Below, piece after piece: positions 53,123 to 61,387 of a stretch of DNA of 64,000 nt. Source of the stretch: Thoreauomyces humboldtii (lineage: Eukaryota > Chytridiomycota > Chytridiomycetes > Spizellomycetales > Powellomycetaceae). The notes under the pieces are model-generated. The model searched no databases. It was not told where the DNA came from and saw only the letters and a list, made by a program, of their open reading frames with translations. Position numbers and translations under genes: made by a program. The stretch spans positions 1 to 64,000 of the forward strand of contig JADGJA010000028.1 of assembly GCA_027596035.1 (NCBI GenBank). Reading direction: 5' to 3'. Positions within the stretch are counted from its first letter, which is position 1; each line of letters opens with the position of its first letter.

Positions 53123-56100
53123 ATGGACGATGCCGCCCGCGCTGGTCGTGGTTACTTGACCGCAACAGATCTTGGGAGGTACCATGTTCATTTGTGCAAG
53201 AAGCTTCTATGGCTTGCAAACGATCAGCGTCGCGTAAAGGGACCTAGAGTTCAGAAGGATGTCAACGTCTTGGACCAGGCTCGGTTCGACAAAGGCAACA
53301 AATGGGAGATCCGGTTGCAAGAGCGCTTGGATGAAGAGGGTCTCATCATGAGGGGCCCTGGAGAGCGGCACATAACGATCGCAGAGCTCATGAACCGCAT
53401 ACAAACGGATCCGAGAGCACACTATTACTTCGTGGATCTTTCCTTTATTGCGCCAGCGTTTACCGAGCAACTTGCCGCTCGGGGATGGCCCGCAGGCTCC
53501 GTCGCCTTTGGTACATTCAAGCCAGACTTTCTGGAAATGTGGATTGAGCGGGGCCCACCAGGACCTTCCGACAGTGTTGGGCCGATATCATCGCTTCGCT
53601 GGCGAGTGATTGACGCAAAGGCTAGCAAGCGGGTCAAGATCTCGCATCAAGTCCAGGTTGGATTCTACTGGATTTGTCTTGCGTCTCTCTTCGAGACCTG
53701 GGCAGCCCATCACCCTGTCATCAGCGCGAACATCGACATTATACCAGACCCACTAGGGATCGTCTGGATACCTTCTGCAGACGTCGACTTGGCGACTGCC
53801 AACGTCCCAGCGACCGTGGGCGAGTTCTCGTTACCTATGTTTAGACCACTTCTCGAAAACTTCCTTTTCGATGAACTCCCGAAAACGCTGGCTTCGGACG
53901 TGGCCGAAGTCCCTTGGCATTTGAATCCTCTTTGTAGAGGATGCGACTTTGTAGCTCGCTGCGAAAATGAGACCGTGGCCCAAAAGCGCCTCGGCAATAT
54001 TCCGGACTTGGCAATGGCGGATCACGCATTTCTGAGAGATGTCAGGTTATCTTGCGGTGGCAGCCAAATTCGGGATTTAGAGGACCTGCATTATTTCCTA
54101 CATGACAGCGAGGTCCAGGATCGACTCCCGACCGGCGCCCGTGCTCGCGTCGCCCGGTTGCTTAACACGGGAAACGGGAATCTCCTCGGATCCACGAGCC
54201 AAGGCGTTAGCTCCTGCCCGATATCCGAATCTTCTGTGGTTCGTGCGGCTGTAAAACAAACGGTGGTTCCACACCTCCGCCGCTACTTGCGGTTTCCTCG
54301 CACACAGGACGTGGCTGTGTATCTGGCGCTCGGATTGGATCCCGAAACCGATCAGTTGTTTGCGTTCACCATGCGTGCTGTCGAGTGTTCAACACGCACC
54401 GTCATTTACGAAGATAAACGGATTCTCAGTAGCGATAATGCAGGAGAGTCAGGACGCCATTTCGTGGAAAGTCTGGCAGCATTGATACGCGACCTTGTAG
54501 GCCGCAAGCAATCGGCTATCGATCTCAATCCGAAAGCTACCTTGCGGGTCCAGTTTTACGTTGCCTCGCAGTCAGATCATGCCGCGTTGACTCGCGTCTT
54601 GATCATTCAGGCTACGTCGGAGGGGGAGTGCCCAGAGGCGACCAAACTCTGCATCGGCGCATTATTGGACGACGCAGGCATTCTCCTCACTAGTGTGCAG
54701 CCCGAGTTGATCTCGCCGCGTGTACTTGTCAAACTCCGGTCCACAGCCAACGTGCCCGAGATCAAGCGATACCTTCAGATTTTCGGAGGAAGTTCCGTCT
54801 CCCTTGATGGAACGAAACCGGTCCTGCTTGAGCGACTCGCTGGGATCATGCAAGCACCTGCCAGAGGAGTCGTAAAAGGATTGCAAAGGATGGTCCCGAA
54901 GGTCACAGTTCTCCGCGACTGCGTCTCGAATATGTTCGCCCTTCCTATCCCGGGCTTCTTCAGTATTGAGGACTGTCATGCACATCTTGTTCAGGGCGGA
55001 CTGCGCATTGAAGGACCTTTGCATCAACCAGACATGTGGGCCGCAATGTACGCTCTGCAAAAGGAGGACCCCCAGCACCCGGAGATTGACCGATTGCTGG
55101 CGAAAGTTTCGGAAGTGATGGAGGCTGTGGAACTTTCGGCAAGGCGAGTAATGGAGAAGGAATGTAAAGACGCCGAAAAGTCTGTTGCTAGCTTGCTGCC
55201 AAATACGGCGAGAGATTTCGAGGTTCTCTTCATCGACGTGTGCAAAGATCCCGCACTGAAGCGCCTTTTGTTTATGGCTCAATTTGAGGTGGTAACCCAG
55301 CTGGAGAATCTTGTGCAAAGTAGACTGGCAAACACCCACAGTACGCGCTTGACCCTCACAAGCACAGACGGCGCTACTATATTCACTCCCGTTAGCGGTT
55401 CAGAAAACCTGGACAATACTCCGGCGCCAACGTCTCCTGGAACTGGGTCTCAAGGTCCTGGCATGTATCAGTATATCATCACTCGCGCAGATGACGATCA
55501 GGATGCACTCCTTAGTTTTGACGACCTTGAATGGTCTGGTGTCTTTGTCGTCGGTCGGCCGGGCATCACCGGTGGACCCGGTTGGGGGGTTGCCGAAGTG
55601 ATTGGCTGGGATGAGTCCGGGGATGTCGAAATCAAAGTCCGATGTCAGCGTGGATTCCTCGTCAAAAATACCGACTATTTGTTATCAAAAAGAATGGTTG
55701 ATTTTAACACTACAAAGCTGATAAAGAACATCCTCACGATCGATGACGAGTTGCATCAAAGGTGCGCCACGTTGATGTTTCCAGTTTACTGGTGCGGCTT
55801 CCTTGTCTCCTTACTGGTCGGTCTTTCTTCACAGTCCGACCACCCCTCCTTTCGTTACACAACTTCTGCACGAATCTCCCACAATCGACGCGCCCTTGCT
55901 TGTTGCTCAGGACCAGGCCGCGGAGCGTAGGCTCCAGGCGTTTTACCGCGAGTACTACGAGCTTCAGGGCGAGGATAAGGTGCTCCTGTTTGCAGGTAGT
56001 CAACGAAAGGCTTTCCAAGGTGTCCTGAGCAGACGCGTGTCTGTTGTGTGGTAAGCTCTGCAACCAAAATGAAGTTAGTGATTTGAAGTAACATTTGATG

Positions 56101-57689
56101 CACCAAGGGGCCCGCCCGGACATGGTGAGAGTTTTGAAAATGATACGGGCGTTGTTGAGACACGGAACATCCCAGGCCAACATAGAGTTATGTGCAGGTA
56201 AAACGCATACGCTGGCACTGAGCGCCCTCCGACTCATGGAGCTTGCCGGTCGTCGCTCACCTCCGCAACCGTTTCGCATACTCGTGGTGAGCACCACGAA
56301 CAACGCCGTGGAGCTGCTACTTGCGAAGTTCGGGGCTCTGCTAAACCACGCCCGTGGAATCGAGAACATGGCGCGCGGAGAATGGCGAGATAGCGCGCTT
56401 CCTTACCTGCTTCCGAAAGTTGCTGCGGAAATGCCAAAGCCCGACACGCTACCATCTTACGCGATCGTCGGTGCGACATGCTGGGGCGTGTTCAACTGGG
56501 CGGCCCAACGCGCGGGAGTTGGCTCGTGCTTCGATGCTCTCATCATCGATGAAGCGTCGCAGATGACGGTCACTGAAGCGCTGATCCCGATTCATTGCGT
56601 CTTCGGATGTGGAGACACGAAGGACAAGAGGCTCGTGGTCGCAGGCGATCACATGCAGCTTGCCCCGGTTCTGCAAGGCGTGTATCCGCTGTCTCCGTTG
56701 GCTTTGTTCGGCTCGGTGCTTGAATGGCTGGTTGATGTTGGCAACGACGCGCTACCGCCTGGTGAAACCACCACCGTCCATCCAAGGATGGACATGCTCA
56801 CGGAAAACTTCCGGATGGTTCGTGATCTTTGCGCGTTCTCGAACACGTTGTACAAGAAGGGCGGTGTGTTCATACCCATGCGATCAGGCGAAAGCGACTC
56901 GGTGCAGGCATTCGTGCCAACTACGACTTCGCTAGCTCTAAGTATTCCGCCTTCGATTCATCGTGACATGGTCAACTTCGGCACGTTGCCGGTAGCGACG
57001 CGGTCCGTTATTTTCGTTCCAGGAGAGCACATCGACTTTGAGGCGCAGCTGAAGGTTGAAGCGCAAGCCGCAGTGAAAGTATTGCGGGTGCTTGCAGAAC
57101 GTGGACACGACCTGAAAGCGCCGCGGACAGTGATGGTCGTCACGCCACATCGTGCGCAGCGTGTCGCAGTTCGCAGAGCTGTCGAAGCCGACGAAGTCCT
57201 CAGAGTGGATGCAGGAAACATTCGGATCGACACGGTCGAGCGCATACAAGGAGGGGAGGCGGACGTCGTCGTCGTTTGTTACGCGTTCACCGGATGTGCA
57301 AGCTAGTAAGTTCGCCGTGTGTTCCCCGAATTTGAACTTCTGGACGATTGACCCCTTCCAGCCATGAAGCCACCCTAGGTTTCACATACCACCTTCCGAG
57401 ATTGAACGTGGCTCTTTCACGAGCTCGAGATGCCTGCATTTTGCTAGTCTCGGCGTCCTTCCTGGTGCCTCCACTCGCTGCGGTCGGTGATCCTCACACA
57501 AGGGATGGGTTGGCCCACCTGTGGGGATTTGTGAGCGGGGCGCAGGTCGTCCGGTGGTCCGAAGAACACAGTCTTGATTCGGACGTTATTGAGGATTTGA
57601 GCGAAAACTGGGAAGGGGAAGCGTCCTTCGGATACAACGACGAGGATGAGTCAGAGTTAGTTTTGATGTTGAGTGGGTTGGGGGTCTGA
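53123..57689 (+). CDS. RecB/Cas4-like nuclease fused to SF1 helicase
   Basis: Exons 53123-55761, 55835-56050, 56108-56124 (17 nt), 56198-57305 and 57362-57689 (1435 aa), all in phase. N-terminal PD-(D/E)XK nuclease: D135 in F-K-P-D, D164/K166 in I-D-A-K, and H-Q-V-Q at 175-178. Four Cys of a Cas4/Dna2-type 4Fe-4S site are C25 and C271-x2-C274-x5-C280. A middle region (about 395-520) resembles the YprB/RNase-H-like domain of bacterial TM0106-family proteins but lacks the catalytic acids I would expect. C-terminal UvrD/Upf1-like helicase: Walker A G-P-P-G-H-G-K-T at 953-960, DEAS with D1075, G-D-H-x-Q-L at 1107-1112, and N-V-A-L-S-R-A-R. It does not read like Dna2. Function in DNA repair or genome defence is inference. 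Confidence 0.88.
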
Positions 57690-59053: not shown

Positions 59054-61387
59054 CTACCAGTTCTCAAAGCACGGTCGACTCCTAGCAAAGGTCTCGAACC
59101 TCTGTTTGACCTTCTTGACGAACCTCTTTCCACCGCCGACCTTTCGTTCCACAAAGCTCCGTCTCCTTCCCGGTCTCATCCCTAGAGCAGGTCCGCCCAC
59201 GATGCCGTCCAGGGCCTCGTCCTCATCCTCTCCTTCGTCCTCATCCTCGAAGACGCTGACCACAGGTCGTCTGACCAGTCCCCAGGGACTTCCTCCGACG
59301 CTTCCGGTCTCGCTCCGCCTCAGACACTCGACGAGGTTGTAGCCCTCGCCCCTCACGACCGCCCTCTGCTTCTTCCACATGCGCTCGCTGAAGTCAGCGT
59401 CGATTCGGAAGAGGCGTTCGAGGCCGTCCATCGTCTCGCGCCACCACGTCGGGGAGGTGAGGAGATGGAGGATGTGAACGCGGGTTTCAGGAGAGAAGGG
59501 GATTCGGGAAGCGGGGAGAAACGACCATCCGTACGGGTAAGAGCGCCACCGATCCGGGTGTTTGTACGGGAAGGCGAGCCCATTATCGATAGCTGCAACC
59601 TGGATCACTGGCTTGACTCCGTCTGCGGGTGACGGCTCACTGATGTCTGCGTTGCTAGCCACAGAGACCGGGATGGTCCCGGCAGACGAAACCGGCGATG
59701 CTGTAGTTGCTTGATCAGGGACCGACGTTCGCCGGCCAGGTGCTAGTGGGCTGATCTCAGAATCCGCCTCGCACTCGTTCAAGCCTTCCGCGCCGCTCTC
59801 AGGAGAGCCAGTATCGAACATGGTGTCTGCGAGAGTCACTTCCGGTGATACCGACGTCGCCGTTGGTGGCGGCGGCATCTCTATCGACACGTGAGCTGGC
59901 TTCTTCAGCGCCTCGGAAGCAGCACCGTCGTCTGCCTCCCTCTCAACGGCATCCAATGCAGCGTCGTACTTGACCATCCAGTTGTCCAAACCGCGATCGG
60001 TATTTCGGATGAGATAATCGAGGATCGCTAGCCGCTCGAACCCCCAGCGAAACTCCCTTCGTGCCCGCTCGCTCCATTGATATGGGTTTTGTGGATCGGG
60101 AGTCTGCATCTGCCGCGGAAGGTTCTCCGATGACGGTCGTTGGGAGCTCGGCATGGACGCTGAACCAGAACGTCGCATGCTCTCGTAGCCCTCCCGAAAG
60201 AATGTCGTTGCATCCTTGTATCCTTTCAGAAACACCTGGAACGACCCGACCTTCTCCGGAAGCTCTCCCCCCCGCGTATACGATTTCCAGTCTTTCCTTG
60301 AGTAGTAAAAGGTAGGACTGGCCAGGTAGACAACTTCCGTTCGTGGGACCACGTGGAGTTGCAGGCGTCGGTCAATGTAGCTAGCTGCCGCCTCGGAAAT
60401 GTACCCCAAGTTGGGAATGATACAACTTCGTCCAAAGCAGCATGGAAACATGTTTTTGTGGATCCATTTTGTCCACTTCGGGTTGAGATGACCGTAAGGT
60501 TCCTCATTTTTTGGCTTGAAGACACCCAGCATCTCTCCAGCTCTGTTGCGGCAGAAGTAAGACCCGCTAGATCCCTGTGAGATCAGAGTCGGGTAGACGC
60601 CCTCTGCTATGGCTGCCCGAACTTCATCGATGATGGCCAGAAAATCGGCGGACGATAGAGGTGTGACAGCGGTCACCGAGTTTGCGAACTCAAGGGCAGG
60701 AGTCACCAACGAGTCGCTATACGCACTCCCACCATCGCCATGAGATGGCTCCTCGTCCAGGCCTGGCATGATGCTCGGCGCGTACGAGACGAGAGGTTCC
60801 TGGTGTTCGTACTCTCCGTTGCGACTTCTGTCCCGGGAAGTCGAAGGAAGGGCTGAAGAGTGGGCGCGTTTCGGCTTCTTGCCTCCAAAGTTGAAGAGAC
60901 GATCCTGCGAATGTGCAGACGACATAGATCGGCCGCGACGTTCCGGCGCATCCTGATCGGAATCAGAGTCGTTGGGGTTCGCTGGCGTTCCGAAGTAGTC
61001 CAGTCCGTTCGACGAGCCCGACGCGACCTACAAGGGGAAGACAAGCGCAGAGTGAGCTACTCGATTCAGCAGGCAGCTCGCTGCGAGATGCCTGATGCCC
61101 CTCGCGAAGAGCTGACGTACTGGGCTGACGTCGCTCATTAGGAAGTCTGCGTGATCCTCAGCCAACGGCGCGTAACCCGACTTTTTCTGGTTTGGCTTCT
61201 TGCTAATCTTCGCCTTGTACTGACGCAGTGGCTTGGGAGAGGATGTCTGGGATGGCAGCGTTCGCGAGAGACCGGAAGGAGCCGAGTCCGAAAAGGAGCG
61301 TGCGGCGTGTTGAGCGGCGTTCTGCTGGATGTTTGAGTTTGATGTGCGTCGAGGAAAGCGATGCGGGGGGACTTGGGGAGAGGGCAT
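59054..61387 (-). CDS. LSB6: Type II phosphatidylinositol 4-kinase
   Basis: Exons (minus): 61387-61121 and 61027-59054 (746 aa). Makes PI4P on endosomal and vacuolar membranes. Seen: a long basic/Ser-rich N-terminus, then the kinase domain with S-Q-G-S-S-G-S-Y-F (nucleotide loop) and G-V-F-K-P-K-N-E-E-P-Y-G. N-M-F-P-C-C-F-G-R-S-C is the cysteine cluster corresponding to the palmitoylated CCPCC of animal enzymes. The catalytic R-N-T-D-R-G-L-D-N-W and the metal-site I-D-N-G-L-A-F-P follow. A Pro/Ser/Thr/Glu-rich insert (about 425-540) separates the last two motifs, longer than in yeast. First ATG of the open frame chosen. Confidence 0.94.

What the first reader, a model, noticed from the sequence alone, without database searches (positions are those of the whole stretch)
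53123..57689. Fungal three-part nuclease-helicase resembling bacterial TM0106/RecB-type proteins
Seen: a Cas4-like nuclease with four Fe-S cysteines, a degraded YprB/RNase-H-like middle, and an intact SF1 helicase in one 1435-aa chain. Established: in eukaryotes the known nuclease-helicase fusion with such an Fe-S site is Dna2, whose conserved blocks are not found here. Inference: an independent nuclease-helicase, possibly acquired from bacteria and then intron-bearing, with a possible role in repair, replication-fork processing or defence against foreign DNA. The nuclease half sits in one 2.6-kb intronless exon while the helicase half has four introns.
Basis: partly seen in the sequence, partly recalled or inferred. 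Interest (0 to 1): 0.8.

Follow-up and report, generated by a model that had tools for sequence, protein, structure and literature searches.

The report
Fungal branch of bacterial nuclease-helicases
A soil chytrid fungus carries, beside its normal Dna2 repair enzyme, a second DNA-cutting and DNA-unwinding protein that belongs to a family known from archaea and bacteria, and the same gene occurs in other chytrids and in some mushrooms.

Summary
Window 53123-57689 (+) encodes one 1435-aa protein in five exons; the contig is from the chytrid Thoreauomyces humboldtii. It is a Cas4/RecB-type nuclease with four Fe-S cysteines, a central RNase-H-fold (DEDD-like) domain predicted inactive, and an SF1 helicase. 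It is not Dna2: the genome has its own Dna2 elsewhere. Nor is it TM0106 proper (TIGR03491 10.6 bits, cut-off 97.45). It is homologous over its length to archaeal/bacterial 'bifunctional RecB family nuclease/DEAD/DEAH box helicase' proteins (fungal-only against prokaryotic profile: E 1e-102, 1193 columns), which share the layout published for Bad, the bacterial DNA2-like enzyme. Chytrid and mushroom versions form one clade in separate trees of nuclease and helicase, among prokaryotic branches and away from Dna2. Ten nuclease and Fe-S positions never vary (gaps aside) in 18 fungal and 124 other members. Likely mechanism, inferred: a 5'-3' ssDNA motor with an ssDNA/flap-cutting nuclease. The cellular role is unresolved: some bacterial relatives sit in Dpd, BREX-like or methyltransferase loci, others do not. 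It is a eukaryotic branch of a known kind; my searches found no printed description.

The parts
53123..57689 (+). Whole gene: 1435-aa nuclease-helicase, five exons, join(53123..55761, 55835..56050, 56108..56124, 56198..57305, 57362..57689)
   Evidence: Open translation; four of five exons matched one by one by Powellomyces P0002; relatives of similar length in other chytrids
53135..54112 (+). Residues 5-330: Cas4/RecB-type PD-(D/E)XK nuclease with Fe-S staple
53195..53197 (+). C25, first Fe-S cysteine
   Evidence: C in 17 of 18 fungal (1 gap) and 118 of 124 other rows (6 gaps)
53612..53620 (+). D164-x-K166, nuclease motif III (in IDAKAS)
   Evidence: D and K in 18 of 18 fungal and 123 of 124 other rows (1 gap)
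53933..53962 (+). C271-x2-C274-x5-C280, three Fe-S cysteines
   Evidence: C271 in 141 of 142 rows (1 gap), C274 and C280 in 140 of 142 (2 gaps each)
54287..55231 (+). Residues 389-703: RNase-H-fold, DEDD-exonuclease-like domain, predicted inactive
55232..55970 (+). Residues 704-925: connector, no assignment made; holds intron 1 (55762-55834)
   Evidence: Model to residue 879; alignment
55971..57491 (+). Residues 926-1370: SF1 helicase (AAA_11/AAA_12)
   Evidence: Pfam; NCBIfam helicase models
56108..56124 (+). 17-nt micro-exon carrying most of the Walker A motif (GPPGHGKT spans 56109-56205)
   Evidence: demanded by alignment to the relatives; skipped in the deposited model P0001
57226..57258 (+). 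Helicase motif IDTVERIQGGE
57399..57428 (+). Helicase motif VI RLNVALSRAR (in the last exon, missing from the deposited model)

Best explanation
The gene is a fungal member of a prokaryotic family of single-chain nuclease-helicases: Fe-S-stapled RecB/Cas4-like nuclease, inactivated RNase-H/DEDD-like central domain, and Upf1/Dna2-type SF1 helicase. It was most likely acquired from an archaeon or bacterium before the chytrid and mushroom lineages parted, or passed between them later. Shown: gene structure, homology along the chain, conserved nuclease and Fe-S residues, loss of the first catalytic Asp in the centre, a separate Dna2 in the same genome. Inferred: it works like the characterised bacterial enzyme Bad. 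The helicase tracks 5'-3' along ssDNA, the nuclease in front of it cuts the same ssDNA or 5' flap, and the dead exonuclease-like domain serves as a DNA-binding or positioning module. The most likely role is processing of 5'-ended ssDNA (flaps, resected ends, stalled forks) in genome maintenance, additional to Dna2; clearance of foreign DNA is the main alternative.
For: Fungal-only profile (18 rows) against a prokaryotic profile (8 rows, none shared): prob 100, E 1e-102, 1193 columns. Profiles built from chytrids alone hit the prokaryotic proteins with all three parts, e.g. Methanosarcina mazei P0102: nuclease 98.0, middle 33.0, helicase 219.8 bits. Helicase tree of 58 chosen rows: fungi 99/89, and the family split from own-genome Dna2 and three other own-genome SF1 helicases at 100/99. 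Nuclease tree of 53 rows: fungi 100/100, sister to the main prokaryotic clade 95/88. Catalytic and Fe-S positions unchanged, gaps aside, in 142 sequences. The genome's only Dna2-nuclease match is elsewhere, G000:C374, 178 bits. Five of ten large window frames scanned match families that I know from eukaryotes, such as a DUS3L-type Dus and a PI3/PI4 kinase, so contamination is unlikely.
Against: No biochemistry, expression or phenotype was found for any fungal member. Bad's own sequence was not retrieved, so its place in the family is judged from layout only. The best PDB sequence match is DNA2 (5eax_A, 41 bits, helicase part only). In the helicase tree the fungi are one branch of an unresolved fork among prokaryotic branches; in the nuclease tree chytrids are not one clade (two rows join the agarics at 87/68 and 91/94) and long branches are flagged, so one vertical descent is not proven. 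Direction of translocation rests on SF1B kinship. The middle-domain fold rests on models (mean pLDDT 83.2 and 84.8).
Confidence: 0.72

Rival explanations
1. A domesticated restriction-like defence enzyme: the nuclease-helicase destroys foreign DNA (virus, plasmid, transposon intermediates), as its relatives may do in bacterial defence loci.
For: Relatives beside defence genes: a 771-aa nuclease+middle protein overlapping a 2113-aa AAA protein, in the same stretch as dpdA, two dpdB, queE and a 6-carboxytetrahydropterin synthase gene, in Skermanella; the same pair in Methylobacterium and Caulobacter, there without dpd genes in the stretch shown; in Caulobacterales L015 the 2108-aa partner is DpdJ at 2216 bits. 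These stand-alone nucleases match the chytrid-only nuclease profile at E 7e-14 to 4e-8 and, with a profile that also holds five prokaryotic rows, both nuclease and middle parts. D12 adenine methyltransferase directly after it in Fibrella, with patatin and TIR-LRR genes near; BrxL directly upstream in L013. HSDR_N-type and helicase genes beside L192. DNA methyltransferase and anti-phage dGTPase beside a distant member. Bad lies beside a type III-like Mod gene (PMC7430649, passage). Sporadic: 23 of 344 genomes, the seed genome included, and 1 of 398 at E<=1e-60.
Against: Those placed in the trees (L034, the Dpd nucleases, L012) are not in the clade nearest to fungi; L192 and Bad were not placed. 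In 6 of 23 fetched loci the downstream genes are a conserved set, identified in the one locus scanned as ParA-like ATPase, MCP sensor and CheR; Methanoculleus L011 has NHL and fasciclin neighbours; Chlorohelix has no annotated defence neighbour. With chytrid-only profiles the middle part of the Dpd nucleases is not significant (E 0.014-0.041). No N6_N4_Mtase (PF01555) match in the fungal genome. One copy in the fungus.
Confidence: 0.25
2. It is a divergent Dna2 paralogue that arose inside eukaryotes.
For: Same two activities in one chain; Dna2 is the best PDB sequence match.
Against: Own-genome Dna2 groups with three other own-genome SF1 helicases, away from this family, 100/99; all three parts match the prokaryotic proteins in the same order.
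Confidence: 0.03
3. The fungal proteins have lost function and the gene is drifting.
For: The deposited model P0001 is truncated and some agaric entries are short (P0020-P0023, 921-1038 aa).
Against: Nuclease and Fe-S residues are kept across fungi, gaps aside; the Walker Lys column holds K in 15 of 18, two gaps and one I; relatives at 32-54% identity keep the chain.
Confidence: 0.03

Closest known systems
Bad, bacterial DNA2-like helicase-nuclease of Geobacillus stearothermophilus (PMC7430649; passages read)
   Same: Three-part chain: Fe-S staple nuclease, conserved centre, SF1B helicase; like spacing in prokaryotic members found here
   Different: Fungal, 190 aa longer, intron-bearing; no direct alignment to Bad was made. 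The paper calls Bad's centre unknown; here the centre of this family is modelled as an RNase-H/DEDD-like fold
Proteins that NCBI names 'bifunctional RecB family nuclease/DEAD/DEAH box helicase' (Methanoculleus, Methanofollis) and like archaeal/bacterial proteins
   Same: Homologous along the chain (fungal-only profile E 1e-102), same unchanged nuclease residues
   Different: Most listed ones have 1220-1300 aa; position 402/404 mostly T/Q there, S/G or like in fungi
TM0106 family (TIGR03491)
   Same: Nuclease, RNase-H, helicase order; with prokaryotic rows in the profile the nuclease and RNase-H parts match (E 1.6e-28; prokaryotic rows alone E 1.3e-35)
   Different: TM0106 consensus keeps F-D-F-E. 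Fungal rows alone match TM0106 in the helicase only (E 3.5e-19, 192 columns). Query far below the cut-off; outgroup in the tree
Dpd system: stand-alone nuclease plus DpdJ
   Same: Nuclease part matches; SF1 part of L015 DpdJ groups with seven family rows at 98/82
   Different: Split in two genes; DpdJ continues beyond the SF1 part
Eukaryotic Dna2
   Same: Fe-S nuclease fused to SF1B helicase; likely similar chemistry
   Different: Separate gene in the same genome; the Bad paper states that eukaryotic DNA2 lacks Bad's central domain (passage)

Membership tests
Prokaryotic bifunctional RecB nuclease/helicase family (Bad-like layout) | Homology over nuclease, middle and helicase parts in one chain | tested here: met
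   Fungal-only profile against prokaryotic profile E 1e-102, 1193 columns; three chytrid-only profiles match in order
Prokaryotic bifunctional RecB nuclease/helicase family (Bad-like layout) | Groups with it, away from Dna2 or TM0106, in trees of each half | tested here: met
   Helicase tree; nuclease tree
Bad itself | Sequence homology to WP_053413574 | not tested
   Sequence not retrieved; layout only
Bad itself | Fe-S content, ssDNA endonuclease, 5'-3' helicase activity | not testable with these tools
   Needs protein
Iron-staple RecB/Cas4 nucleases | Four Cys in C...C-x2-C-x5-C pattern and RecB motifs | tested here: met
TM0106 family (TIGR03491) | Score above the curated cut-off 97.45 | tested here: not met
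   10.6 bits; no match in own genome at E<=1
TM0106 family (TIGR03491) | RNase-H part with D-x-E | tested here: not met
   First Asp absent in either register
Dna2 | Pfam Dna2 nuclease domain PF08696 | tested here: not met
   Not among the matches of the protein at E<=1; the genome's only PF08696 match is on C374
Active DEDD exonucleases | D-x-E of motif I | tested here: not met
   Position 402: D in 0 of 142. Position 404: Q 101, H 10, G 8, E 8, D 1, others or gap 14 of 142. Other motifs not settled
DpdJ | About 2100 aa, SF1 part plus a second helicase part | tested here: not met
   P0002 matches only profile positions 50-281 of 2112 in its best stretch, 74 bits; 1435 aa

The most novel reading that the evidence does not exclude
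Fungi keep a restriction-like DNA immunity enzyme taken from prokaryotes: a Bad/Dpd-type nuclease-helicase that loads on free 5' ends of foreign or replicating DNA and destroys it, perhaps told apart by DNA modification. It would be a DNA-level defence in chytrids and mushrooms separate from RNA interference.
Probability: 0.2. Interest if true: 0.85.

Novelty: new member of a known kind. Interest (0 to 1): 0.55.

Why it matters
Dna2 is usually taken as the eukaryotic nuclease-helicase with an Fe-S staple. This family shows that several fungal lineages carry another one with prokaryotic kin and keep its nuclease site; in the genome studied it stands beside Dna2. It also gives a fold assignment (an inactivated DEDD/RNase-H-like domain) for the centre of these enzymes; the Bad paper called that of Bad completely unknown. 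It makes direct tests possible in cultured chytrids and mushrooms.

Tried and rejected
Dna2 orthology: rejected. TM0106 membership proper: rejected by score, kept as distant kin. Bacterial contamination: rejected, introns plus neighbours plus chytrid relatives. Rfam and tRNA scans of the window: nothing. Foldseek alone gave no match at E<=0.001 for either model; the fold rests on the VIA re-alignment. 'PLuB' is the best NCBIfam name (helicase part only): the one paper found was unrelated. Literature: 'TM0106'+'RecB' 0 papers; the other searches listed no title or abstract start about a fungal member; lists were capped in part. I read an outline and passages of PMC12458937 and passages of PMC7430649, PMC7641849 and PMC5704561. 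'Not in print' is limited to this. A PF01555 partner in the fungal genome: none. Context surveys were partial: Pfam on 10 neighbour proteins of 6 loci and 10 of 5 loci out of 23; 8 of 146 plasmid records opened, one unannotated, one a TM0106 protein, one without the nuclease part. Phage records: 1 of 50,697 matched, not opened. In Fibrella's phylum 5 of 198 genomes matched at E<=1e-20, but one is Fibrella and four match over the helicase part only, so I do not count them.

Mended on checking: my first profile comparison (E 4e-186) shared five prokaryotic rows between its two sides; I repeated it with fungal rows only, and the conclusion stands with E 1e-102. The same repeat against TM0106 left only the helicase match. 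The register of the D-x-E is not certain: by the shared D-P, TM0106 F-D-F-E-G-D-P faces L-T-L-Q-x-D-P; as I read it lies two residues later, so D406 would face the Glu. The first Asp is lost in both.
Full report
What is there. The window lies on contig C201 of a 20.67-Mb assembly and its gene is 98% identical, over 92%, to a protein of Thoreauomyces humboldtii, a chytrid of the Spizellomycetales. The stated gene is real: five exons, 1435 aa, no internal stop. Powellomyces protein P0002 finds four of the five exons and nothing else in the genome at E<=0.001, and exon 1 finds only itself at E<=0.01, so the gene is single-copy at this sensitivity. The 17-nt third exon is needed to form the P-loop GPPGHGKT seen in the relatives. 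The deposited protein misses it, and misses the last exon. Of ten other large frames of the window scanned, five match a Pfam family, among them Dus with a DUS3L zinc finger and PI3/PI4 kinase, so the gene appears to sit in a fungal chromosome.

Relatives. The first search gave 13 proteins, of which 8 are from species that I know as chytrids (P0001 being this gene). A profile search added Spizellomyces and Nowakowskiella, and Agaricomycetes (two Mycena species, Flagelloscypha, Crucibulum, Coprinellus, Dendrothele), plus unnamed P0018. The taxonomy of Thoreauomyces, Polychytrium, Nowakowskiella, Flagelloscypha and Dendrothele was looked up; that of the others is recalled. P0020-P0023 are short entries of 921-1038 aa. 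A search seeded with prokaryotic members gave 131 proteins at E<=1e-20, 120 listed, most of them 1220-1300 aa, from Methanoculleus, Methanosarcina, Methanofollis, Desulfobacterales, Anaerolineales, Competibacteraceae, Isosphaeraceae, Gemmatimonadetes and others; NCBI calls several 'bifunctional RecB family nuclease/DEAD/DEAH box helicase'. A fungal-only profile (18 rows) and a prokaryotic one (8 rows), with no row in common, match over 1193 columns at E 1e-102. An earlier comparison with shared rows gave E 4e-186 and is not used.

Trees. Helicase part, 58 chosen rows: chytrids 99/92, agarics 100/100, together 99/89; own-genome Dna2 and three other own-genome SF1 helicases stand apart at 100/99; the fungi are one branch of an unresolved fork with several prokaryotic branches. 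Nuclease part, 53 rows: fungi 100/100, sister to the main prokaryotic clade 95/88, TM0106 outside 100/100. Within fungi the nuclease tree puts two chytrid rows with the agarics at weak support (87/68, 91/94), and the tool warns of long branches. The two halves agree that the fungi form one group among prokaryotic branches. Whether there was one old acquisition with many losses or a transfer between fungi is not settled.

Mechanism. The published biochemistry that I found to fit is that of Bad (PMC7430649; passages): Fe-S protein, monomer, ssDNA endonuclease, 5'-3' translocase and helicase, cutting ahead of the motor, with a conserved centre of unknown structure. Bad's sequence was not retrieved, so this is a likeness of layout, not a tested homology. 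By inference the fungal protein does the same chemistry.

Role. For defence: relatives in the same stretch as Dpd genes (pairs without dpd genes in view; DpdJ at 2216 bits in L015), the stand-alone nucleases matching the chytrid-only nuclease profile (E 7e-14 to 4e-8) but not its middle profile (E 0.014-0.041), and both parts of a profile that also holds prokaryotic rows; relatives beside a D12 methyltransferase (L034) and BrxL (L013), beside HSDR_N (L192); and Bad beside a type III-like Mod gene. Against: in 6 of 23 fetched loci, 22 of them archaeal-phylum genomes of L011's kind, a conserved downstream gene set occurs, and in the one scanned it is ParA-like ATPase, MCP sensor and CheR; other neighbours scanned include metabolic genes, and only part was scanned. 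The family is sporadic (23 of 344, seed included, and 1 of 398 genomes). The fungal genome shows no N6_N4_Mtase match. I favour DNA maintenance next to Dna2, with defence as a serious second.

Verdict. A real, intact, conserved gene family, a eukaryotic branch of a known prokaryotic kind. The new points are its presence in chytrids and mushrooms, here beside Dna2, the inactive DEDD-like centre, and the split form next to DpdJ.

Noticed in passing
L134:8992-17645, L135:8992-17834, L136:5004-13597, L015:7143-15862: A 762-805-aa Fe-S nuclease is encoded just upstream of a protein of about 2100 aa (DpdJ in L015; same size and place in the others), in L134 in the same stretch as dpdA, dpdB and queE: the family in split form.
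   Followed up: partly
window:56051-57689: The deposited protein HKX48_004236 skips the Walker A micro-exon and the last exon; other fungal entries (P0020-P0023) are also short, so automatic annotation may hide this family.
   Followed up: yes
L185, L186, L187, L188, L189, L190: In 6 of 23 fetched loci the gene is followed by a conserved gene set (clusters of about 240, 870 and 262 aa, the last in 5 of 6), in L186 ParA-like ATPase, PAS/MCP sensor and CheR: unexplained link of a nuclease-helicase with chemotaxis genes.
   Followed up: partly
L012, L096, L196: Distant members lack the CxxC...C pattern searched for, so they may have lost the Fe-S staple; L196 lies beside a DNA methyltransferase and an anti-phage dGTPase gene.
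   Followed up: no
L193:10486-11250: Nucleotidyltransferase-HepT protein (toxin-antitoxin type) directly downstream of a member close to Methanosarcina mazei P0102; a protein of the same cluster lies near the gene in L191 and L194.
   Followed up: no
window:52171-53080 (-) and 59057-61027 (-): Neighbours: a SAP-domain-like gene (my reading of the frame, not searched) and a PI3/PI4-kinase gene.
   Followed up: partly
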